Part shown: one piece after another, positions 6,527 to 63,160 of the stretch
How the letters are laid out: every line of letters begins with the position of its first letter
Position numbering within the stretch: the stretch's first letter is position 1
NCBI RefSeq assembly: GCF_045679555.1
Contig: NC_092087.1
Coordinates: 26,915,367 to 26,979,366 of the forward strand
Direction: 5' to 3'
DNA: 64,000 nt
Source: Salvelinus alpinus
Lineage: Eukaryota > Chordata > Actinopteri > Salmoniformes > Salmonidae
The notes under the pieces: generated by a model
What the model was told of the DNA's origin: nothing
Seen by the model: the letters and a program-made list of their open reading frames with translations, nothing else
Database searches by the model: none
Program-made: the position numbers and the translations under genes

Positions 6527-6893
6527 TGTCACGTTCACTGTCTTCAAACCCCCTGTCATAGATGAGCCAAGGCGCAGCGTGCATGTAATTCCACATTTCT
6601 TTTAATTGTAGTGAAACTTTCACAAAAAGAACAGGTAAACAGAAACAAACGTGACACAACCGTGGCGCACACAAACACACACAGAAAATAAAATAATTAC
6701 CCACAACATTATGTGGGAAAAAGGCTGCCTAAGTATGATTCCCAATCAGAGACAACGATAGACAGCTGCCTCTGATTGGGAACCACACTCGGCCAAAAGC
6801 AAAGAAATAGAAAACATAGAATGCCCACCCAAATCACACGCTGACCTAACCAAATAGAGAAATAAAACGGCTCCCTAAGGTCAGGGCGTGACA
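6527..6893 (-). repeat. 3' LTR of copy A
   Basis: 367 bp, TG…CA, nearly the same length as the 3' LTR of copy B (366 bp). It contains the shared block with GATTCCCAATCAGAGACAAC followed by CAGCTGCCTCTGATTGGGAA, which is itself a short inverted repeat. Confidence 0.85.
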
Positions 6894-6941
6894 GTACCCC
6901 CCCCCCCCCAAAGGTGCGGACTCCGGCCGCAAAACCTGACT

Positions 6942-8008
6942 CTATAGGGAAGGGTCCGGGTGGGCATCTATCCTCGGTGGCGGCTCCGGTTCGGGACGTA
7001 GCCCACGATCCGCACGCTCATCCCTCCGCTTCCGTGGAACCGGACCACAGATCGCCGCCGGAGACTCCGGACCGTGGATCGTTGCCAGAGGAACCGGACC
7101 GTGGATCATCGCCGGAGGCTCTGGATTGGGAACCCCCACTGGAGGCTCTGGACTGCAGACCACCGCTGGAGGCTCTGGACTGCAGATCGTCGCTGGAGGC
7201 TCTGAACTGCAGATCGTCGCTGGAGGCTCCGGACTGCGGACCGTTGCTGGATGCTCCGGACTGGGGACCGTCGCTGGAGGCTCCGGACTGGGGACCGTCG
7301 CTGCAGGCTCCAGACAGGGGACCATCGCTGGAGGATCCGTGCCTTGGATCGTCCCTACAGGCTCCGGGCCATGGATCATCACTGGAGGCTTCGTGCCCTG
7401 GATTTTCACTAAAGGCTCCGGGCCATGGATCATCACTGGAGGCTTCGTGCCATGGATCATCACTGGAGGCTCCGTGCGTGCCATGGATCATCACTGGAGG
7501 CTCCGGGCCATGGATGATCACTGGAGGCTTCGTGCCATGGATCATCACTACAGGCTTCGGGCCATGGATCATCACTGGAGGCTTCGTGCCATGGATCATC
7601 ACTGGAGGCTTTGGACCATGGATCTCATCACTGGAGGCTTCGTACGTGGAGCCGGAACAGGTCTCACCGGACTGAGGAGACGTACTGGCAGCCTGGTGCG
7701 TGGAACTGCCACAGGGCTTACCAGGCTAGGGAGACACACTGGAGGCCTGGCACCTGGAGCCGGAACAGGTCTCACTGGACTGAGAAGACGTACTGGAAGC
7801 CTGGTGCGTGGAGCTGCCACAGGGCTTACCAGGCTGGGGAGACATACTGGAGGCCTGGTGCGTGGAATCGGATACACTGGGCCGTGGAGGCGCACTGGAG
7901 GTATCGAGCGTAGAGCTGGCACAACCCGTCCTGGCTGGATGCCCACTTCCACCCGGCAAATGCGGAGCGCAGGCACAGTGCGCACCGGCCTGTGAATGCT
8001 CACTGGAG
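6942..8008 (-). pseudogene. Proline-rich repeat ORF of LTR copy A, broken
   Basis: Minus-strand frames encode PVRLLSPVRPVPAPRTK-type repeats (about 7980-7600), then PPVMIHGTKPPVMIHGPEP-type repeats (7602-7150), ending RPEPEPPPRIDAHPDPSL-stop at 6942. The last segment aligns with the end of the copy B protein (RPAPEPPPRTDAHPDPPL). Different frames are needed along the length, and the N-terminal part is deleted with the 5' LTR edge, so no full protein can be made. Function is unknown. Confidence 0.75.
7126..7640. repeat. 24/27-bp tandem repeats inside LTR copy A
   Basis: Repeated units around GGAGGCTCCGGACTG and, further right, CCATGGATCATCACTGGAGG. The units are multiples of three, so they keep a repeat protein open in several frames on both strands, which explains the many overlapping ORFs here. 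Confidence 0.85.
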
Positions 8009-8211
8009 ACACAGAGACCCACAACATTAAGTGGGAAAAAGGCTGCCTAAGTATGATTCCCAATCAGAGACAACGATAGACAGCTGCCTCTGATTGGGAA
8101 CCACACTCGGCCAAAAGCAAAGAAATAGAAAACATAGAATGCCCACCCAAATCCCACCCTGACCTAACCAAATAGAGAAATAAAACGTCTCTCTAAGGTC
8201 AGGGCGTGACA
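8009..8211 (-). repeat. Truncated 5' LTR of copy A
   Basis: Closely matches 6700-6893 from ACCCACAACATTA to GGGCGTGACA. The other ~170 bp of the LTR are missing at the inner side, so the internal deletion starts within the LTR. Confidence 0.85.
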
Positions 8212-22672: not shown

Positions 22673-25600
22673 CAAATCAAATCAAATCAAATTTTATTAG
22701 TCACATACACATGGTTAGCAGATGTTAATGCGAGTGTAGCGAAATGCTTGTGCTTCTAGTTCCGACAATGCAGTAATAACCAACAAGTAATCTAACCTAA
22801 CAATTCCACAACTACTACCTTACACACACACACAAGTGTAAAGGGATAAAGAATATGTACATAAAGATATATGAATGAGTGGTGGTACAGAACGGCATGG
22901 CAGATGCAGTAGATGGTATAGAGTACGGTATATACATATGAGATGAGTACTGTAGGGTATGTAAACATAAAGTGGCATAGTTTAAAGTGGCTAGTGGTAC
23001 ATGTATTACATAAAGATGGCAAGATGCAGTAGATGATATAGAGTACAGTATATACATATGAGATGGGTAATGTAGGGTATGTAAACATTATATTAACATT
23101 TAAAGTGGCTAGTGGTACATTTTTACATAATTTCCATCAATTCCCATTTTTAAAGTGGCTGGAGTTGAGTCAGTATGTTGGCAGCGGCCGCTAAATGTTA
23201 GTGGTGGCTGTTTAACAGTCTGATGGCCTTGAGATAGAAGCTGTTTTTCAGTCTCTCGGTCCCTGCTTTGATGCACCTGTACTGACCTCGCCTTCTGGAT
23301 GATAGCGGGGTGAACAGGCAGTGGCTTGGGTGGTTGTTGTCCTTGATGATCTTTATGGCCTTCCTGTGACATCGGGTGGTGTAGGTGTCCTGGAGGGCAG
23401 GTAGTTTGCCCCTGGTGATGCGTTCTGCAGACCTCACTACCCTCTGGAGAGCCTTACGGTTGTGGGCGGAGCAGTTGCCGTACCAGGCGGTGATACAGCC
23501 CGACAGGATGCTCTCGATTGTGCATCTGTAGAAGTTTGTGAGTGCTTTTGGTGACAAGCCGAATTTCTTCAGCCTCCTGAGGTTGAAGAGGCGCTGCTGC
23601 GCCTTCTTCACAACGCTGTCTGTGTGGGTGGACCAATTCAGTTTGTCCGTGATGTGTACACCGAGGAACTTAAAACTTTCCACCTTCTCCACTACTGACC
23701 CGTCGATGTGGATAGGGGGGTGCTCCCTCTGCTGTTTCCTGAAGTCCACAATCATCTCCTTTGTTTTGTTGACGTTGAGTGTGAGGTAATTTTCCTGACA
23801 CCACACTCCGAGGGCCCTCACCTCCTCCCTGTAGGCCGTCTCGTCGTTGTTGGTAATCAAGCCTACCACTGTAGTGTCATCCGCAAACTTGATGATTGAG
23901 TTGGAGGCGTGCATGGCCACGCAGTCGTGGGTGAACAGGGAGTACAGGAGAGGGCTCAGAACGCACCCTTGTGGGGCCCCAGTGTTGAGGATCAGCGGGG
24001 TGGAGATGTTGTTACCTACCCTCACCACCTGGGGGCGGCCCGTCAGGAAGTCCAGGACCCAGTTGCACAGGGCGGGGTCGAGACCCAGGGTCTCGAGCTT
24101 GATGACGAGTTTGGAGGGTACTATGGTGTTAAATGCTGAGCTGTAATCGATGAACAGCATTCTCACATGGGTATTCCTCTTGTCCAGATGGGTTAGGGCA
24201 GTGTGCAGTGTGGTTGCGATTGCGTCGTCTGTGGACCTATTGGGTCGGTAAGCAAATTGGAGTGGGTCTAGGGTGTCCGGTAGGGTGGAGGTGATATGGT
24301 CCTTGACTAGTCTCTCAAAGCACTTCATGATGACGGAAGTGAGTGCTACGGGGCGGTAGTCGTTTAGCTCAGTTACCTTAGCTTTCTTGGGAACAGGAAC
24401 AATGGTGGCCCTCTTGAAGCATGTGGGAACAGCAGACTGGGATAAGGATTGATTGAATATGTCCGTAAACACACCAGCCAGCTGGTCTGCGCATGCTCTG
24501 AGGACGCGGCTGGGAATGCCGTCTGGGCCTGCAGCCTTGCGAGGGTTAACACGTTTAAATGTTTTACTCACCTCGGCTGCAGTGAAGGAGAGCCCGCAGG
24601 TTTTGGTAGGGGGCCGTGTCAGTGGCACTGTATTGTCCTCAAAGCGGGCAAAAAAGTTGTTTAGCCTGTCTGGGAGCAAGACATCCTGGTCCGCGACGGG
24701 GCTGGTTTTCTTTTTGTAATCCGTGATTGACTGTAGACCCTGCCACATACCTCTTGTGTCTGAGCTGTTGAATTGCGACTCGATTTTGTCTCTGTACTGG
24801 GACTTAGCCTGTTTGATTGCCTTGCGGAGAGAATAGCTACACTGTTTGTATTCGGTCATGCTTCCGGTCACCTTGCCCTGGTTAAAAGCAGTGGTTCGCG
24901 CTTTCAGTTTCACGCGAATGCTGCCGTCAATCCACGGTTTCTGGTTTGGGAATGTTTTTATCGTTGCTGTGGGTACGACATCGTCAATGCACTTCCTAAT
25001 GAACTCGCTCACCGAATCAGCATATTCGTCAATATTGTTGTTGGACGCGATGCGGAACATATTCCAATCCGCGTGATCGAAGCAGTCTTGAAGCGTGGAT
25101 TCAGATTGGTCGGACCAGCGTTGAACAGACCTGAGCGCGGGAGCTTGTTGTTTGAGTTTCTGTTTGTAGGCTGGAATCAACAAAATGGAGTCGTGGTCAG
25201 CTTTTCCGAAAGGGGGGCGGGGGAGGGCCTTATATGCGTCGTGGAAATTAGTATAACAATGATCTAGGGTTTTCCCAGCCCTGGTAGCACAATCGATATG
25301 CTGATAGAATTTAGGGAGTTTTGTTTTTAGATTAGCCTTGTTAAAATCCCCAGCTACGATGAATGCAGCCTCAGGGTGTGTGGTTTCCAGTTTACAAAGA
25401 GTCAGATAAAGTTCGTTCAGGGCCATCGATGTGTCTGCTTGGGGGGGAATATATACGGCTGTGATTATGATTGAAGAGAATTCCCTTGGTAGATAATGCG
25501 GTCGACATTTGATTGTGAGGAGTTCTAGATCAGGTGAACAGAATGACTTGAGTTCCTGTGTGTTGTTATGATGATCACACCACTTCTCGTTAATCATAAG

Positions 25601-26155
25601 GCATACCCCCCCGCCCCTCTTCTTACCGGAAAGATGTTTGTTTCTGTCGGCGCGATGCATGAAGAAACCAGCTGGCTGCACCGACTCCATTAGCGTCCCT
25701 TGAGTTAGCCATGTTTCCGTGAAGCAGAGCACGTTGCAATCCCTGATGTCTCTCTGGAATGCTACCCGTGCTCGGATTTCATCAACCTTATTGTCAAGAG
25801 ACTGGACATTGGCGAGTAGTATGCTAGGGAGTGGAGCGCGATGTGCCCGTCTCCGAAGCCTGACCACGAGACCGCCTCGTTTGCCCCTTTTTCGGCGTCG
25901 CACAGGGTCGCCGGCTGGGATCAGATCCATTGTATTGGGTGGAAGGCAAAACACTGGATCCGTTTCGGGAAAGTCATATTCCTGGTAGGAACGATGATGA
26001 GTTGACGTTAATCGTATATTCAGTAGTTCCTCCCGACTGTATGTAATGAAACCTAAGATTACCTGGGGTACCGATGTAAGAAATAACACATAAAAAAACA
26101 AAAAACTGCATATTTTCCAAGGAACGCGAAGCGAGGCGGCCATCTCTTTTCGGCG
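22673..26155 (-). mobile_element. L2-clade LINE (RSg-1-like), near full length
   Basis: The minus-strand element ends in a (TTTGA)n-type tail (ATCAAATCAAATCAAATC at 22671) preceded by a ~500-bp 3' UTR with TATACTG-rich text, which I recognise as the salmonid RSg-1 3' end. Its ORF spans 26143-23198. The 5' end is set near 26155, just upstream of the ATG, by inference only. Two truncated relatives lie at 34338-36085. Confidence 0.88.
23198..26143 (-). CDS. LINE ORF2: AP endonuclease / reverse transcriptase
   Basis: An uninterrupted 981-codon ORF drives target-primed reverse transcription. The start is taken at MAASLRVPWK; an in-frame ATG 28 codons upstream reads through presumed flank. Residues ~10-35 are hydrophobic (FLFFYVLFLTSVPQVILGFI). 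The endonuclease follows: LLANVQSLDNKVDE, CFTETWL, VAGDFN and the ADHDS end motif. Reverse transcriptase motifs are NDYRPVALTSVIMKCFERL, FIDYSSAFNTI, GAPQGCVLSPLLY and the catalytic FADD box (FADDTTVVG). The C-terminus reads SSRRRGQYR…LLNSHH-stop. Length and motifs fit the L2 clade. No frameshift or stop is seen, so the copy is young or recently active. Confidence 0.92.
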   Translation of the reverse strand: MAASLRVPWKICSFLFFYVLFLTSVPQVILGFITYSREELLNIRLTSTHHRSYQEYDFPETDPVFCLPPNTMDLIPAGDPVRRRKRGKRGGLVVRLRRRAHRAPLPSILLANVQSLDNKVDEIRARVAFQRDIRDCNVLCFTETWLTQGTLMESVQPAGFFMHRADRNKHLSGKKRGGGVCLMINEKWCDHHNNTQELKSFCSPDLELLTIKCRPHYLPREFSSIIITAVYIPPQADTSMALNELYLTLCKLETTHPEAAFIVAGDFNKANLKTKLPKFYQHIDCATRAGKTLDHCYTNFHDAYKALPRPPFGKADHDSILLIPAYKQKLKQQAPALRSVQRWSDQSESTLQDCFDHADWNMFRIASNNNIDEYADSVSEFIRKCIDDVVPTATIKTFPNQKPWIDGSIRVKLKARTTAFNQGKVTGSMTEYKQCSYSLRKAIKQAKSQYRDKIESQFNSSDTRGMWQGLQSITDYKKKTSPVADQDVLLPDRLNNFFARFEDNTVPLTRPPTKTCGLSFTAAEVSKTFKRVNPRKAAGPDGIPSRVLRACADQLAGVFTDIFNQSLSQSAVPTCFKRATIVPVPKKAKVTELNDYRPVALTSVIMKCFERLVKDHITSTLPDTLDPLQFAYRPNRSTDDAIATTLHTALTHLDKRNTHVRMLFIDYSSAFNTIVPSKLVIKLETLGLDPALCNWVLDFLTGRPQVVRVGNNISTPLILNTGAPQGCVLSPLLYSLFTHDCVAMHASNSIIKFADDTTVVGLITNNDETAYREEVRALGVWCQENYLTLNVNKTKEMIVDFRKQQREHPPIHIDGSVVEKVESFKFLGVHITDKLNWSTHTDSVVKKAQQRLFNLRRLKKFGLSPKALTNFYRCTIESILSGCITAWYGNCSAHNRKALQRVVRSAERITRGKLPALQDTYTTRCHRKAIKIIKDNNHPSHCLFTPLSSRRRGQYRCIKAGTERLKNSFYLKAIRLLNSHH

Positions 26156-26428
26156 CCGGATACTTATCACACACAAACACAATGTTCCCACTGTCTCACA
26201 ATATTCTAGTATTATGTCTAAACACATTGTCTAAGCTTCTGTAACTATTAGTGTGAAATACTTTAGTCATTACTCTTAATGTCATTCAGATTCTCTTATT
26301 ATTACTTTAAACATATAAATTCCCTTATCAGTAACGAACTCCCCTCACCTGGTTGTCTAGGTCGGAAAGGAAAAAACTAAAATCTGCAGACCCTTGGCCC
26401 TCCGTGGAATAAATTTGACACCCCTGCC

Positions 26429-27602: not shown

Positions 27603-27677
27603 TTTGCATATAAGCAATGTATAAATGCTGATCATTCTAAGGGGAAAACCCGCCAAAAGCTTGTGTTATTGTAACAT
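27603..27677. repeat. 75-bp host flank, copy 1 (outside the LTR element)
   Basis: Starts TTTGCATATAAGCAATG and ends GTAACAT directly before the 5' LTR. It is repeated with one mismatch at 29827-29901, inside the element just before the 3' LTR. Confidence 0.9.
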
Positions 27678-28007
27678 TGTCACGTTCTGACCATAGTTCT
27701 TTTGTATTTTCTTTGTTTTAGTGTGGTCAGGGCATGAGTTGGGTGGGTAATCTATGTTTTCTATTTCTGTGTTGGTTTTCTGTGTTTGGCCTGATATGGT
27801 TCTCAATCAGAGGCAGCTGTCAATCGTTGTCCCTGATTGGGAACCATATTTATTTTCAGTCTTTGTGTGTCTGCACCAGACAGAACTGTTTCGGATTTCA
27901 CTTTGTTGTTTTGTATTTGAAGTGTTCAGTTTTGTATTTATTAAATAAGATGAACACTAACCACGCTGCGCTTTGGTCCTCTCCTTCCACCGACGAAAAC
28001 CGTTACA
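27678..28007 (+). repeat. 5' LTR of copy B
   Basis: 330 bp. It lacks the 36 bp (TTAGGTAGCCTGTTTTC…) present at 30073-30109 of the 3' LTR. It contains the ATG of the ORF at 27950 and ATTAAATAAG just before it, a possible poly(A) signal. Confidence 0.88.
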
Positions 28008-29797
28008 GAACCACCCACCAAAAAAGGACCAAGCAGCGTGGTAACGGGCAGCAACAGGAGAACCAGCGATATCTGGAGAAATGGACTTGGGAGGAGATTC
28101 TGGACGGCAAGGGACCCTGGGTACAGGCTGGTGAGTATCGCCGCCCCAAAGCTGAGCTGGAGGCAGCGAAAGCGGAGAGGCGGTGGTATGAGGAGGCTGC
28201 ACGAAAGCGCGGCTGGAAGCCAGAGAGGCAGCCCCAAAAATTTCTTGGGGGGGGACACACGGGGAGTGTGGCTAAGCCAGGTAGGAGACCTGAGCCAACT
28301 CCCCGTGCTTACCGTGGAGAGAGAGCGACCGGGCAGGCACCGTGTTATGCAGAGATGCGCACGGTGTCCCCGGTAAGCAGGCATAGCCCGGTGCGGTACA
28401 TAGCAGCACCTCGTATCGGCCGGGCTAGAGTGGGCATCGAGCCAGGTGCCATGAAGCCGGCTCTACGCATCTGGTCTCCAGTGCGTCTCCTCGGGCCGTT
28501 GTACATGGCACCAGCCCTACGCATGGTGTCCCCGGTTTGCCAGCACAGCCCAGTGCGGGCTATTCCACCTCGCCGCACTGGCCTGGCTACGGGGAGCATT
28601 CAGCCAGGTAGGGTTGGGCAGGCTTGGTGCTCGAGACCTGTAGTGCGCCTCCACGGTCCGGTCTTTCCGGTGCCTTCTCCACGCACCAGTCCGCCTGTGG
28701 CAGTCCCTCGCACCAGTCCAGTACCACCAGTGCCAACACCACGCACCAGGCTTCCTGTGCGTCTCCAGAGCCCTGTACGCCCTGTTCCTCCTCCCCGCAC
28801 TCGCCCTGAGGTGCGTGTCCTCAGCCCGGTACCACCAGTGCCGGTACCACGCACCAGGCATCCAGTGCGTCTCCAGGGTCCAGTACTCCCTGTTCCTGCT
28901 CCCCGCACTCGCCCAGAGGTGCGTGTCCCCAGCCCGGTACCACCAGTTCCGGCACCACGCACCAGGCCTACTGTGCGCCTCAGCAGGCCAGAGTCTTCCA
29001 TCTGTCCAGTGCCGCCAGGGTCTCCCGTCTGTCCAGCGCCGCCTGAGCTGCCCGTCTGTCCAGCGCCGCCTGAGCTGTCCGTCTGTCCAGCGCCGCCTGG
29101 GCTGCCCGTCTGTCCAGCGCTGCCTGAGCCGCCCATCTGTCCAGCGCCATCTGAGCCGCACGTCTGTCCAGCGCCATCTGAGCCGTCCGTCTGTCCTGAG
29201 CCGCTAGAGCCGCCCGTCTGTCCTGAGCCGCTAGAGCCGCTTGTCTGTCCTGAGCCGCCAGAGCCGCCCGTCTTTCCTGAGCCGCCAGAGCCGCCCGTCT
29301 GTCCTGAGCCGCCAGAGCCGCCTGCCAGTCAGGAGCCGCCAGAGCCGCCCGCCAGTCAGGAGCCGCCAGAGCCGCCCGCCAGTCAGGAGCCACCAGAGCC
29401 GCCCGCCAGTCAGGTGCTGCCAGAGCCGCCCGCCAGTCAGGAGCTGCCAGAGCCGCCCGCCAGTCAGGAGCTGCCAGAGCCGCCATTCAGTCCGGATCCG
29501 ACATTCAGTCCGGAGCTGCCCTTCAGTCCGGAGCTGCCCCTCAGTCCGGAGCTGCCCCTCAGTCCGGAACTGCCCCTCAGTCCGGAGCTACCCCTCAGTC
29601 CGGAGCTGCCCTTCAGTCGGGAGCTGCCCTTCAGTCCAGTGGGGACATTTAGTAGGGTTGCCAATCCTAGGTCGGTGGCGAGGGTCGCCGTTCCTAGGAG
29701 GCCACGGAAGCGGGTAATGACAATGGTGGAGTGGGGTCCACGTCCAGCGCCAGAGCCTCCACCGCGGACAGATGCCCACCCAGACCCTCCCCTATAG
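27950..29797 (+). CDS. Proline-rich repeat protein of LTR element, 615 aa, function unknown
   Basis: The chosen ATG (MNTNHAALWSS) sits 58 bp before the end of the 5' LTR; a longer in-frame start at 27734 lies further inside the LTR. Residues ~20-110 are charged and likely helical (KWTWEEILDGKGPW, RRPKAELEAAKAERRWYEE). From ~130 there are arginine/proline repeats (PVRLQSPVRPVPPPRTRPE). From ~350 there are acidic proline repeats (CPAPPELPVCPAPPE, then PPEPPASQEPPEPP) and FSPELPLSPELP units. The end is EPPPRTDAHPDPPL-stop. The strong skew to repeat codons and the homologous broken copy at 6.9-8.0 kb mark it as an element protein. It may be a gag-like or structural product, but no known domain is recognised. 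Confidence 0.7.
   Translation: MNTNHAALWSSPSTDENRYRTTHQKRTKQRGNGQQQENQRYLEKWTWEEILDGKGPWVQAGEYRRPKAELEAAKAERRWYEEAARKRGWKPERQPQKFLGGGHTGSVAKPGRRPEPTPRAYRGERATGQAPCYAEMRTVSPVSRHSPVRYIAAPRIGRARVGIEPGAMKPALRIWSPVRLLGPLYMAPALRMVSPVCQHSPVRAIPPRRTGLATGSIQPGRVGQAWCSRPVVRLHGPVFPVPSPRTSPPVAVPRTSPVPPVPTPRTRLPVRLQSPVRPVPPPRTRPEVRVLSPVPPVPVPRTRHPVRLQGPVLPVPAPRTRPEVRVPSPVPPVPAPRTRPTVRLSRPESSICPVPPGSPVCPAPPELPVCPAPPELSVCPAPPGLPVCPALPEPPICPAPSEPHVCPAPSEPSVCPEPLEPPVCPEPLEPLVCPEPPEPPVFPEPPEPPVCPEPPEPPASQEPPEPPASQEPPEPPASQEPPEPPASQVLPEPPASQELPEPPASQELPEPPFSPDPTFSPELPFSPELPLSPELPLSPELPLSPELPLSPELPFSRELPFSPVGTFSRVANPRSVARVAVPRRPRKRVMTMVEWGPRPAPEPPPRTDAHPDPPL
29000..29640. repeat. 27-bp and 18-bp coding tandem repeats
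   Basis: 27-bp units around GAGCCGCCCGTCTGTCC and CCGCCAGTCAGGAGCCGCC, then 18-bp units CAGTCCGGAGCTGCCCCT (about 29488-29640). All are in frame with the 27950 ORF. Confidence 0.88.
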
Positions 29798-29826
29798 GTT
29801 CAGGTTTTGCAGCCGGAGTCCGCACC

Positions 29827-29901
29827 TTTGCATGTAAGCAATGTATAAATGCTGATCATTCTAAGGGGAAAACCCGCCAAAAGCTTGTGTTATTGTAACA
29901 T
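29827..29901. repeat. 75-bp host flank, copy 2 (inside the LTR element)
   Basis: Same sequence as 27603-27677 with one mismatch. The left junction falls in a TTTGCAT microhomology shared with the element interior (GCACCTTTGCAT). Confidence 0.9.
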
Positions 29902-30267
29902 TGTCACGTTCTGACCATAGTTCTTATGTATTTTCTTTGTTTTAGTGTGGTCAGGGCGTGAGTTGGGTGGGTAATCTATGTTTTCTATTTCTGTATTGGT
30001 TTTCTGTGTTTGGCCTGATATGGTTCTCAATCAGAGGCAGCTGTCAATCGTTGTCCCTGATTGGGAACCATATTTAGGTAGCCTGTTTTCTGTTGGGTTT
30101 TGTGGGTGGTTATTTTCAGTCTTTGTGTGTCTGCACCAGACAGAACTGTTTCGGTTTTCACTTTGTTGTTTTGTATTTGAAGTGTTCAGTTTTGTATTTA
30201 TTAAATAAGATGAACACTAACCACGCTGCGCTTTGGTCCTCTCCTTGCACCGACGACAACCGTTACA
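29902..30267 (+). repeat. 3' LTR of copy B
   Basis: 366 bp, starting TGTCACGTTCTGACC and ending ACAACCGTTACA. Confidence 0.88.
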
Positions 30268-30894
30268 AACATTGTATACAGTACAATGGCGGTCGGTGCC
30301 TTTCATGATGAGGGAGTCAGTTTTTTTTTCATGAGCATGGCCTTATTTCTATTACAGCATATTGGATAACTGTCATTCATATTCCATTCACCCAGTTCAG
30401 TGTAACATCCCTATGCCCATCATGAGGTTGCTACAACATAGCCTATGAATGAAAGTTTACAACGTAGGTGCACACAGGTCGAGAGAAGAATTTGACGTGA
30501 CACATGGACAGACAGTGACACATTCAATATCGCCTTACACACTCTTGCCTGCATCTTGGTGATCTAGGGTTAATCGTTAGTCCAACAGTTGCAAACGAGA
30601 GTTTCTATAGGACAAATTCAGGTATGTTTATCTCAGTTCCATTCCGTTTGCTTCTGTTTAAGAAACTTTTTTTATCGGCGGAATGAATACACCCCTGATC
30701 AAGCGTAAACACAGTTCACTTTCATAGCAGCCACGTTGTTTTCCTTCTCACATCTATGCACTCTTCTCCTCTCACCTTTTCCCTTTGTTTGTGGACTTCA
30801 ATGCACAACAAATCATCTGAAAAAACCTTTCCAAGCCAAACCATATCAATACCACTACACACAGCCTACATCACTGTCACCATATTGGCTAAAG

Positions 30895-39961: not shown

Positions 39962-42437
<2,476 letters not shown>

Positions 42438-46929: not shown

Positions 46930-48554
46930 CAGTTGAAGTCGGAAGTTTACATACACCTTAGCCAAATACATTTAAACTCAGTTTTTCACAATACCTGACA
47001 TTTAATCCTAGTAAAAAAATCCCTGTTTTAGGTCAGTTAGGATTACCATTACCACTGTCAGAATAATAGTAGAGAGAATGATTTATTTCAGCTTTTATTT
47101 ATTTATTCACATTCCCACTGGGTCAGAAGTTTACATACACTCAATTAGTATTTGGTAGCATTGCCTTTAAATTGTTTAACTTGGGTCAAACACTTCGGGT
47201 AGCCTTCCACAAGCTTCCCACAATAAATTGGGTGAATTTTGGCCCATTCCTCCTGACAGAGCTGGTGTAACTGAGTCAGGTATATTGGCCTCCTTGCTCG
47301 CACATGCTTTTTCAGTTCTGCCGACTAATTTTCTATAGGATCGAGATCAGGGCTTTGTGTTGGCCACTCTAATACCTTGACTTTGTTGTCCTTAAGCCAT
47401 TTTGCCACAGCTATGGAAGTATGCTTGGGGTCATTGTCCATTTGGAAGACCCATTTGCGACCAAGCTTTAACTTCCTGACTGATGTCTTGAGATGTTGCT
47501 TCAATATATCCACATAATTTTCCTTCCTCATGAGACCATCTATTTTGTGAAGTGCACCATTCCCTCCTGCAGCAAAGCACCCCCACAACATGATGCTGCC
47601 ACCCCCCGTGCTTCACGGTTGGGATGGTGTTCTTTGGCTTGCAAGCATCCCCCTTTTTCCTCCAAACATAATGATGGTCATTATGGCCAAACAGTTCTAT
47701 ATTTGTTTCATCAGACCAGAGGATATTTCTCCCAAAAGTACGATCTTTGTCCCCATGTGCAGTTGCAAACCGTAGTCTGGCTTTTTTATGGCGGTTTTGG
47801 AGCAGTGGCTTCTTCCTTGCTGAGCGGCCTTTCAGGTTATGTCGATATAGGACTCGTTTTACTGTGGATATAGATACTTTTGTACCTGTTTTCTCCAGCA
47901 TCTTCACAAGGTCCTTTGCTGTTGTTCTGGGATTGATTTGCACTTTTCGCACCAAAGTACGTTCATCTCTAGGAGACAGAACGCGTCTCCTTCCTCAGCT
48001 GTATGACGGCTGCGTGGTCCCATGGTGTTTATACTTGCGTACTATTGTTTGTACAGATGAACGTGGTACCTTCATGCATTTGGAAATTGCTCCCACGGAT
48101 GAACCAGACTTGTGGAGGTCTACAATTTTTTTTCTGAGGTCTTGGCTGATTTCTTTTAATTTTCCCATGATGTCAAGCAAAGAGGCTCTGCGTTTGAAGG
48201 TAGGCCTTGAAATACATCCACAAGTACACCTCCAATTGACTCAAATGATGTCAATTAGCCTATCAGAAGCTGTTAAAGCCATGACATAATTTTCTGGAAT
48301 TTTCCAAGCTGTTTAAAGGCACAGTCAACTTAGTGTATGTAAACTTCTGACCCACTGGATTTGTGATACAGTGAATTATGTGAAATAATCTGTCTGGAAA
48401 CAATTGTTGGAAAAATGACTTGTGTCATGCAGAAAGTAGATGTCCTAACCGACTTGCAAAAACTATAGTTTGTTAACAAGAAATTTGTGGAGTGGTTGAA
48501 AAACAAGTTTTTATGACTCCAACCTAAGTGTATGTAAACTTCCGACTTCAACTG
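46930..48554 (-). mobile_element. Tc1 element of Sleeping Beauty type, copy 1 (1.63 kb)
   Basis: Ends CAGTTGAAGTCGGAAGTTTA (46930) and the inverted TTCCGACTTCAACTG (48554), with TA on both sides and inner direct repeats (GTCAGAAGTTTACATACACT type) near both ends. It carries a transposase pseudogene on the minus strand. Confidence 0.95.
47150..48168 (-). pseudogene. Tc1 transposase, inactivated
   Basis: DDE/D transposase that cuts and pastes the element. The paired-like DNA-binding domain starts [20 protein letters not shown]; then come RRHN-type residues, the catalytic WSDET and DNDPKHTS motifs, and the third acidic residue in DPIEN. Breaks seen: TGA after GTTQPSY (near 47996), a frameshift in the GGG stretch before [10 protein letters not shown] (near 47600), and TAG right after DPIEN (near 47326). 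The codon after it reads TCG where a Trp is usual. Confidence 0.92.
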
Positions 48555-61511: not shown

Positions 61512-63160
61512 CAGTTGAAGTCGGAAGTTTACACACACTTAGGTTGGAGTCATTAAAACTCGCTTTTCAACCACTCCACAAATTTGTTGTTAACAAACTA
61601 GAGTTTTGGCAAGTCAGTTGTGTCATGCACAAAGTAGATGTCCTAAGTAATATTTCCAACAATTGTTTACAGACAGATTATTTCACGTATAACTCACTGT
61701 ATCACAATTACAGTGGGTCAGAAGTTTACATACACTAAAGTGACTGTGNNNNNNNNNNNNNNNNNNNNNNNNNNNNNNNNNNNNNNNNNNNNNNNNNNNN
61801 NNNNNNNNNNNNNNNNNNNNNNNNNNNNNNNNNNNNNNNNNNNNNNNNCCTTTAAACAGCTTGGAAAATTCCAGAAAATTATGTCATGGCTTTAGAAGCT
61901 TCTGATAGGCTAATTGACATCATTTGAGTCAATTGGAGGTGTACATGTGGATGTATTTCAAGGCATACCTTCAAACTCAGTGCCTCTTTGCTTGACATCA
62001 TGAAGGTACCACATTCATCTGTACAAACAATAGTACGCAAGTATAAACACCATGGGATCACGCAGCCGTCATACCGCTGAGGAAGGAGATGCGTTCTGTC
62101 TCCTAGAGATGAACGTACTTTGTTACGAAAAGTGCAAATCAATCCCAGAACAACAGCAAAGGACCGTGTGAATATGCTGGAGGAAACAGGTACAATTAGT
62201 ATCTATATCTACAGTAAAACGAGTCCTATATCGACAAAACCTGAAAGGCCGCTCAGCAAGGAAGAAGCCACTGCTCCAAAACCGCCATAAAAAAGCCAGA
62301 CTACGGTTTGCAACTGCACATGGGGACAAAGCTCGTACTTTTTGGAGAAATATCCTCTGGTCTGATGAAACAAGTATATAACTGTTTGGCCATAATGACC
62401 ATCTTTATGTTTGGAGGAAAAAGGGGGATGCTTGCAAGCCGAAGAACACCATCCCAACTGTGAAGCACGGGGGTGGCAGCATCATGTTGTGGAGTGCTTT
62501 GCTGCAGGAGGGACTGATGCACTTCACAAAATAGATGGCCTCATGAGGAAGGAAATTATGTTGATATATTGAAGCAACATCTCAAGACATCAGTCAGGAA
62601 GTTAAAGCTTGGTCGCAAATGGGTCTTCCAAATGGACAATGACCCCAAGCATACTTCCATAGCTGTGGCAAAATGGCTTAAGGACAACAAAGTCAAGGTA
62701 TTGGAGTGGCCAACACAAAGCCCTGATCTCGATCCTATAGAAAATGAGTCGGCAGAACTGAAAAAGCGTGTGCGAGCAAGGAGGCCAATATACCTGACTC
62801 AGTTACACCATCTCTGTCAGGAGGAATGGGCCAAAATTCACCCAACTTATTGTGGGAAGCTTGTGGAAGGCTAACCAAAACGTTTGACCCAAGTTAAACA
62901 ATTTAAAGGCAATGCTACCAAATACGAATTGAGTGTATGTAAACTTCTTACCCAGGGGGAATGTGATGAAAGAAATAAAAGCTGTAAATAATAAATCATT
63001 CTCTCTAATATTATTCTGACATTTCACATTCTTAAAATAAAGTGGTGATCCTAACTGACCTAAGACAGGGAATTTTTACTAGGATTAAATGTCAGGAATT
63101 GTGAAAAACTGAGTTTAAATGTATTTGGCTAAGGTGTATGTAAACTTCCGACTTCGACTG
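61512..63160 (+). mobile_element. Tc1 element of Sleeping Beauty type, copy 2, with assembly gap
   Basis: Starts CAGTTGAAGTCGGAAGTTTA and ends CTTCCGACTTCGACTG, embedded in a TA-rich microsatellite. The plus-strand transposase is broken: MGK start lost, stops and shifts throughout; 62569-62874 keeps [10 protein letters not shown]…DPIENESAELKKRV…GKLVEG. Non-functional. Confidence 0.93.
61749..61848. other. Assembly gap (100 N)
   Basis: Exactly 100 N between TGACTGTG and CCTTTAAACAGC. In copy 1 of the same element these two strings are contiguous. Confidence 0.99.

What the first reader, a model, noticed from the sequence alone, without database searches (positions are those of the whole stretch)
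27678..30267. LTR retroelement family that carries only a proline-rich repeat protein
Two copies in opposite orientation (6527-8211 minus, 27678-30267 plus) have TG…CA ends, ~366-bp LTRs and perfect 5-bp target duplications (GAATG, AACAT). Copy A has a purine tract before the 3' LTR. Neither has gag, protease, RT or integrase motifs. Copy B keeps a 615-codon ORF whose ATG is inside the 5' LTR; its charged N-terminus and proline repeats match no family I know. Conservation of the C-terminal EPPPR-x-DAHPDP-x-L ending in both copies suggests the protein was once under selection. This is the best candidate here for an undescribed element type.
Basis: partly seen in the sequence, partly recalled or inferred. 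Interest (0 to 1): 0.72.

Follow-up and report, generated by a model that had tools for sequence, protein, structure and literature searches.

The report
Self-priming retroelement with orphan protein
Two insertions in this fish-like genome belong to an abundant retroelement that carries no copying enzymes, appears to start its own reverse transcription from its folded RNA, and encodes one unusual proline-rich protein that selection seems to have preserved.

Summary
Both insertions are LTR elements with TG...CA ends and perfect 5-bp duplications. Copy B keeps a 615-codon proline-rich ORF; Pfam found no gag, protease, RT or integrase in it or in the relatives scanned. Corrections: B's 5' LTR is 330 bp, having lost 36 bp; B has no purine tract because 75 bp of its own upstream flank is repeated before its 3' LTR.

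Relatives at 20 loci of the same genome share the layout or are solo LTRs. New here: the site just after the 5' LTR pairs perfectly with 10 bases inside the LTR, 31-32 bases after a TATA-like box, in 11 of 12 copies; four different sequence pairs stay complementary. With a second LTR-leader duplex this matches the self-priming structure of Tf1/sushi elements. The ORF starts inside the LTR, in frame at seven spacings (12 of 13 copies). Between subfamilies changes concentrate at third codon positions (omega 0.16-0.61 in eight chosen pairs); within a subfamily they do not.

Best reading: a non-autonomous, self-primed LTR retroelement whose orphan protein, at the gag position, was selected while pol came in trans. 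No partner with pol was found; the genome search answered only once.

The parts
27673..27677 (+). 5-bp target site duplication AACAT (left), copy B
   Evidence: sequence
27678..28007 (+). 5' LTR of copy B, 330 bp; lacks 36 bp present in the 3' LTR, including the first 8 bases of the self-primer
   Evidence: LTR alignment
27950..29797 (+). 615-codon proline-rich ORF; ATG lies in R/U5 of the LTR
   Evidence: in-frame start in 12 of 13 copies
27960..27980 (+). LTR arm of the downstream pretzel-type duplex
28009..28018 (+). primer binding site AACCACCCAC, complementary to GTGGGTGGTT inside the 3' LTR
28025..28042 (+). leader arm of the downstream duplex, pairs with 27960-27980
28070..28249 (+). 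N-terminal region of the ORF with the WTWEEI motif (charged), approximate limits
   Evidence: alignments
29827..29901 (+). 75-bp repeat of copy B's own 5' flank (27603-27677), standing where other copies have the purine tract
   Evidence: G-rich tract before 11 other 3' LTRs
29902..30267 (+). 3' LTR of copy B, 366 bp, TGTCACG...CGTTACA; TATA-like TATTTAG at 30071, self-primer GTGGGTGGTT at 30102
30268..30272 (+). 5-bp target site duplication AACAT (right), copy B
   Evidence: sequence
6527..8211 (-). copy A, a different subfamily; deleted from R of the 5' LTR into the ORF; purine tract kept; TSD CATTC
6942..8012 (-). remnant of the proline-rich ORF in copy A, broken, ending EPPPRIDAHPDPSL

Best explanation
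This is a high-copy, non-autonomous LTR retroelement. It is transcribed from a TATA-like box in its LTR. The RNA starts about 31 bases later with a 10-base sequence that folds back on the primer binding site just after the LTR and primes reverse transcription, as in Tf1/sushi elements. Reverse transcriptase and integrase come in trans from an autonomous Ty3/gypsy element, probably of Tf1/sushi type, with matching LTR ends. Its single ORF starts inside the LTR, where Gag would start, and makes a probably disordered protein (charged N-terminus, basic proline-rich repeats, acidic proline-rich repeats). That protein was kept by selection in the propagating lineages; I infer that it binds and packages the element's own RNA or joins the helper's particles. 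Copy B itself should now be immobile: it lacks the primer start in its 5' LTR and the purine tract. Shown: LTR/TSD anatomy, no pol family found, covarying primer/PBS, frame-keeping and codon-position pattern. Inferred: the start site, trans mobilisation, the partner's identity and the protein's role.
For: TG...CA LTRs and 5-bp TSDs in copies A and B; perfect 5-bp TSDs at 3 other copies with both outer ends (L015, L022, L023) and 8 solo LTRs. No Pfam family in 6 further long family ORFs, in L010 and L009, or in A and B. Internal regions bounded by two LTRs are about 1.3-2.4 kb (1.1 kb in the deleted copy A), too short for pol. Primer/PBS 10 of 10 in 11 of 12 copies, four distinct pairs, cross-pairing only 7-9 of 10 Watson-Crick. 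TATA-like box exactly 31 bases upstream of GTGGG in 33 of the 36 family LTRs that a box pattern picked out. Downstream duplex: 0 and 1 of 500 shuffles reach the observed energy in L009 and L015, and compensatory outer pairs in L022 (read by eye). ATG-to-PBS spacing 53, 56, 59, 62, 65, 83, 86: same frame in 12 of 13. Between-subfamily omega 0.16-0.61 in 8 chosen pairs, third-position excess, against 21:21:20 within a subfamily; chi-square p 0.003 and 0.022 for two disjoint pairs. Tf1/sushi anatomy as described in PMC10085805 passages.
Against: No autonomous partner was found, because the genome search answered only once. The upstream pretzel duplex is weak: 22-86 of 500 shuffles do as well in the 4 copies tested. 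In that test the downstream duplex of L011 and L022 was matched by 31 and 36 of 500, probably because my cut removed part of the arm. The first covariation count on A1 was spoiled by misplaced columns and a misaligned L022 row. A 10-base complement alone is not significant: 47 of 500 shuffles reach it. Only 2 of 14 internal regions have the ORF open end to end. In the full pair table omega across subfamilies or modules reaches 0.81. N-terminal modules differ between otherwise near-identical copies, so the 'domain' is not one fixed fold. The codon-position tests use few independent comparisons. The predicted structure of the N-terminus is poor (pLDDT 59.7, pTM 0.21).
Confidence: 0.72

Rival explanations
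1. Deletion derivative: the ORF is a shortened or altered gag left over from an autonomous self-primed element that lost pol; the protein is a Gag variant, not a new protein.
For: The ORF starts where Gag would start, runs through the PBS, and its C-terminus lies close to the 3' end of the element.
Against: No Pfam Gag or zinc-knuckle match in the ORFs scanned, and about a quarter proline with tandem repeats. Pfam may miss divergent gag.
Confidence: 0.25
2. Hitchhiking repeat: the long ORF is an accident of G+C-rich, stop-poor tandem repeats and never had a function; the element is a plain non-coding passenger.
For: Other frames of the same DNA are also fairly open. Most copies are frameshifted or broken and omega is about 1 within a subfamily.
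Against: Third-position excess between subfamilies (tests); U5 length changes keep frame at seven spacings; C-terminal motif at the end of an open frame in 9 of 14 internal regions.
Confidence: 0.1
3. The partner is a Gmr1-type Ty3/gypsy element rather than a Tf1/sushi type.
For: The published rGmr1 LTR end motifs (TGTNANR...CGTNACA) fit this LTR as well as the Sushi motifs (TGTYANR...CNTNACA) do.
Against: In the passages I read, self-priming with the three-duplex structure is described for Tf1/sushi. I saw nothing either way about Gmr1 priming.
Confidence: 0.15
4. The ORF is a captured host gene or a host-domesticated protein that serves the fish rather than the element.
For: The N-terminal region has no recognised family in Pfam or among solved structures.
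Against: The start codon lies in the LTR and the ORF comes with the element in the relatives examined that keep internal DNA; individual copies decay with omega near 1.
Confidence: 0.05

Closest known systems
Tf1/sushi group of Ty3/gypsy retrotransposons (Tf1, sushi-ichi)
   Same: Primer binding site complementary to the presumed start of the RNA; PBS-adjacent sequence pairs with the LTR downstream of the primer; LTR end motifs fit; poly(A)-like signal near the LTR 3' end and T-rich LTR (papers seen as passages and one section).
   Different: No gag, protease, RT, RNase H, integrase or chromodomain found; a single proline-rich ORF starting inside the LTR.
TRIM and LARD non-autonomous LTR elements (PMC6934838, PMC3532108, PMC6696364: start of abstract in search listings only)
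   Same: Non-autonomous LTR elements without pol; depend on a partner.
   Different: TRIMs are described there as small elements with a short internal domain; this one has a 1.3-2.4 kb internal region with a selected ORF, and a self-priming site.
Revolver of Triticeae (abstract and section list of PMC2851119)
   Same: High-copy transposon-like family carrying a single gene unlike known transposon genes.
   Different: A plant element with inverted repeats at its ends and an intron-bearing gene for a 139-residue protein.
BARE-2 type parasitic LTR elements, and Ty1 whose Gag starts in the LTR (recalled, not from a call)
   Same: Use of another element's proteins (BARE-2); ORF starting inside the 5' LTR (Ty1).
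   Different: BARE-2 keeps pol and Ty1 is autonomous; neither is known to me to have this protein.

Membership tests
LTR retroelement | paired LTRs with TG...CA ends and short target duplications | tested here: met
   L009, L020, L025 match at only 4 of 5 and the second L012 copy shows none
LTR retroelement | purine tract next to the 3' LTR | tested here: met
   copy A and 11 other 3' LTRs; copy B has lost it through a flank repeat
Tf1/sushi group | self-primer complementary to the PBS | tested here: met
   11 of 12 copies 10 of 10, four covarying pairs; that the RNA starts there is inferred
Tf1/sushi group | two further duplexes flanking the PBS (pretzel structure) | tested here: inconclusive
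   downstream duplex strong in L009 and L015, weaker in L011 and L022; upstream duplex weak against shuffles
Tf1/sushi group | LTR end motifs TGTYANR...CNTNACA | tested here: met
   TGTCACG...CGTTACA or CGTGACA against the table in PMC3601003; the rGmr1 motif fits as well
Tf1/sushi group | gag-pol with chromodomain integrase and RT placed in the clade | tested here: not met
   no pol domain in the ORFs scanned; so not filed as a member, only as working like one
TRIM | small element with a short internal domain and no long ORF | tested here: not met
   615-codon ORF in B, 401 codons from the PBS in L019
Non-autonomous LTR element mobilised in trans | autonomous partner with matching LTR and PBS in the same genome | not tested
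   The genome search answered only
Gmr1 clade | integrase before RT in pol | not testable with these tools
   no pol in the element; LTR end motif fits

The most novel reading that the evidence does not exclude
The proline-rich repeat protein is a new kind of retroelement structural protein. It sits at the gag position, begins inside the LTR so that its first codons and the self-priming RNA structure are the same bases, and serves a pol-less element that supplies its own RNA-packaging protein while taking enzymes from a self-primed partner. Its N-terminal modules are swapped between lineages by recombination.
Probability: 0.3. Interest if true: 0.75.

Novelty: new variant of a known kind. Interest (0 to 1): 0.52.

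Why it matters
Non-autonomous LTR elements are usually thought of as non-coding passengers. Here one seems to have kept a protein of its own under selection while discarding the enzymes, and to have kept the self-priming RNA structure through compensatory change. If right, it gives a natural test of which functions an LTR element must supply in cis, and it accounts for an abundant repeat in this genome that could otherwise be annotated as proline-rich 'genes'.

Tried and rejected
Chance or artefact: rejected, because independent copies at other loci share the layout.

tRNA priming: no TGG-type site follows the LTR in the copies read (by eye; no tRNA comparison was run). The region is explained by LTR complementarity.

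Autonomous copy near the fetched loci: reverse transcriptase ORFs exist in some loci, for example L018 (RVT_1; others seen by eye), but none was seen between two LTRs of this family; not linked.

Relatives in other collections: none for the N-terminus in viral contigs, none for the leader pattern in genome contigs or viral contigs; those tools may leave out records near the window's genome. Solved structures: best E 0.31, chance level. Structure prediction was too poor to search with.

Counting pairs on alignment A1 with a structure typed by hand failed because the columns were misplaced; I used a direct count instead.

Literature: the rows listed by ten searches (lists capped, one search had 715 papers and showed 8) named no description of this family. 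The library lacks most subscription papers and repeat databases, so that is weak evidence of novelty.

Full report
What is there. Copy B (27678-30267, plus) and copy A (8211-6527, minus) are LTR insertions with TG...CA ends and perfect 5-bp duplications, AACAT and CATTC. B's LTRs differ at 6 of 329 aligned bases, and its 5' LTR lacks 36 bp that the 3' LTR has. A's differ at 4 of 181 aligned bases. B carries a 615-codon ORF from an ATG inside the 5' LTR. Pfam finds nothing in it or in A's C-terminal ORF. In A the frame has 10 internal stops, all in one block of repeats. B's 3' end is unusual: 75 bp of its own 5' flank stands between the ORF and the 3' LTR (74 of 75 identical), where other copies have a run of G. 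The simplest reading is an exchange after insertion, with short homology at TTTG, between this copy and an allele or sister copy (inference). B therefore lacks both the primer start in its 5' LTR and the purine tract, and should be immobile although its ORF is open.

Relatives. The LTR query gave 42 matches, with 6910 first-look candidates of which 40 were scored. I fetched 9.9-kb stretches holding ranks 2 to 21 (20 loci). Ten of these 20 hits have the proline-rich internal DNA and an eleventh (L026) a fragment. Nine have none: seven solo LTRs with perfect 5-bp duplications (L013, L016, L017, L018, L024, L027, L028), one solo LTR in L011 with 4 of 5, and a 3' LTR remnant in L014. Six further family elements lie in the same stretches without having been sought (L011 minus, L011 at 8532 with a perfect duplication, L012 start, L013 at 9409, L022 minus, L027 at 1004). 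So the family is dense; extrapolating from this biased sample gives some 10^4 to 10^5 pieces in the genome, a rough inference. Copies L015, L022 (5' LTR cut to 61 bp) and L023 have perfect duplications; L009, L020 and L025 match at 4 of 5; the second L012 copy shows none. A G-rich tract precedes 11 of the 3' LTRs. Internal regions bounded by two LTRs are about 1.3 to 2.4 kb, 1.1 kb in the deleted copy A. Six long ORFs of relatives gave no Pfam family, nor did L010 and a piece of L009; a piece of L012 gave one match at E 0.61, below its cut-off. The N-terminus of the second L012 copy, which holds a stop, was left out.

Priming. Just after the LTR stands AACCACCCAC; its complement GTGGGTGGTT lies inside the 3' LTR. 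A 10-base match alone is not significant (47 of 500 shuffles reached 10 or more). What counts is covariation. With the primer defined by position (31 bases after a TATA-like box; 32 in the L012 start copy) and the PBS by the LTR end, 11 of 12 copies pair 10 of 10; L023 pairs 8 because its PBS lost a base. Four different pairs occur: GTGGGTGGTT/AACCACCCAC, GTGGGTAGTT/AACTACCCAC, GTGGGATATT/AATATCCCAC and GTGGGTGTTT/AAACACCCAC; the last three are seen in one copy each, and swapping partners drops to 7-9 Watson-Crick pairs. For the L012 start copy the primer was read in its 3' LTR. A pattern for the box printed 41 rows; I take 36 as family LTRs and 5 as chance, and GTGGG stands exactly 31 bases after the box in 33 of the 36. 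A second duplex joins the LTR (ACCACGCTGC...TTGGTCC) to the leader (GGACCAAGCAGCGTGGT): 0 and 1 of 500 shuffles match it in L009 and L015, 31 and 36 in L011 and L022, where my cut removed part of the arm. Its outer pairs change on both sides in L022 (read by eye). A third duplex upstream of the PBS is weak (22 to 86 of 500 in four copies). This is the arrangement described for Tf1/sushi elements: primer/PBS plus two duplexes between PBS-adjacent sequence and the LTR (PMC10085805, passages; PMC6317226, passages). LTR ends TGTCACG...CGTTACA fit the published Sushi motifs and equally those of rGmr1 (PMC3601003, passages and section 12). My first pair count on an alignment was spoiled by misplaced columns and is not used.

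The protein. The ATG lies in R/U5 and reads through the PBS and the leader arm. From ATG to PBS the spacing is 53, 56, 59, 62, 65, 83 or 86 bases, all in one frame, in 12 of 13 copies; L015, at 64, is out of frame. A start like MNTNHAALWS and an RTKQR stretch recur with variation across subfamilies, followed by a WTWEEI-type motif in most; the second L012 copy and L015 have TTWDEI instead. Composition runs from a charged N-terminus through basic proline-rich repeats (net +15 in 130 residues) to acidic proline-rich repeats (net -26 in 150). N-terminal modules differ between copies whose next 130 codons are nearly identical (L009 and the second L012 copy against B), which suggests module exchange, perhaps during reverse transcription. 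Two of 14 internal regions (B and L019) are open end to end; the C-terminal motif ends an open frame in 9 of 14.

Selection. For 8 between-subfamily pairs that I chose, omega in the N-terminal part is 0.16 to 0.61 and changes fall 178:129:260 over codon positions; the same DNA read in the other two frames gives 0.74 to 1.39 and 0.91 to 3.37. For 7 within-subfamily pairs they fall 21:21:20, omega 0.73 to 1.37. The full table over 110 codons is wider: across subfamilies or modules 0.21 to 0.81, highest for pairs with the second L012 copy; within the B subfamily 0.58 to 1.74 over its 10 pairs. In the next region between-subfamily omega is 0.25 to 0.58 (288:276:443; pairs with L010 there compare a stretch that is barely alignable) and within-subfamily 1.15 to 5.84 (29:30:17). 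The pairs share sequences. Two disjoint pairs give chi-square p 0.003 and 0.022; B against the L012 start copy compared with B-L019 plus L020-L021 gives Fisher p 0.011, with B in both groups. So copies drift after insertion, while the lineages that kept moving conserved the protein.

Mechanism and limits. I take it as a non-autonomous element that works like a Tf1/sushi element in priming and relies on a partner for enzymes. It fails the pol criterion and is not filed as a member. The protein's role (RNA binding or packaging) is inferred from its position and charge only; structure prediction was uninformative. The partner was not found, since genome search did not complete. The rows listed by ten paper searches named no description of the family, which cannot exclude a name in repeat libraries.

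Noticed in passing
window 23198-26227 minus: 1009-residue ORF with endonuclease-like and reverse transcriptase domains (RVT_1 E 7e-33; Exo_endo_phos E 2e-4, just below its cut-off), apparently an uninterrupted non-LTR retrotransposon ORF.
   Followed up: partly
window 47434-47994 minus: Tc1/mariner-type transposase fragment (HTH_Tnp_Tc3_2, E 9e-23).
   Followed up: partly
window 39962-40753 plus: 263-residue ORF without a convincing Pfam family, ending in a possible zinc-finger start (by eye); it may be a host gene exon.
   Followed up: no
window 61749-61848: run of 100 N, an assembly gap.
   Followed up: no
L013:2854-3390 plus: retroviral envelope-like ORF (TLV_coat E 2e-8) some kilobases from a solo LTR of this family.
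   Followed up: no
L010:2674-4120: family copy whose ORF holds a stretch (EAETVKDLMGKLEERVMREVLCW...) not seen in the other copies aligned, possibly a swapped module.
   Followed up: no
L022:1204-3231 and L022:3232-3638 minus: a copy of the main subfamily (TSD ATAGC) inserted in the leader/early ORF of an element of another subfamily, on the opposite strand.
   Followed up: partly
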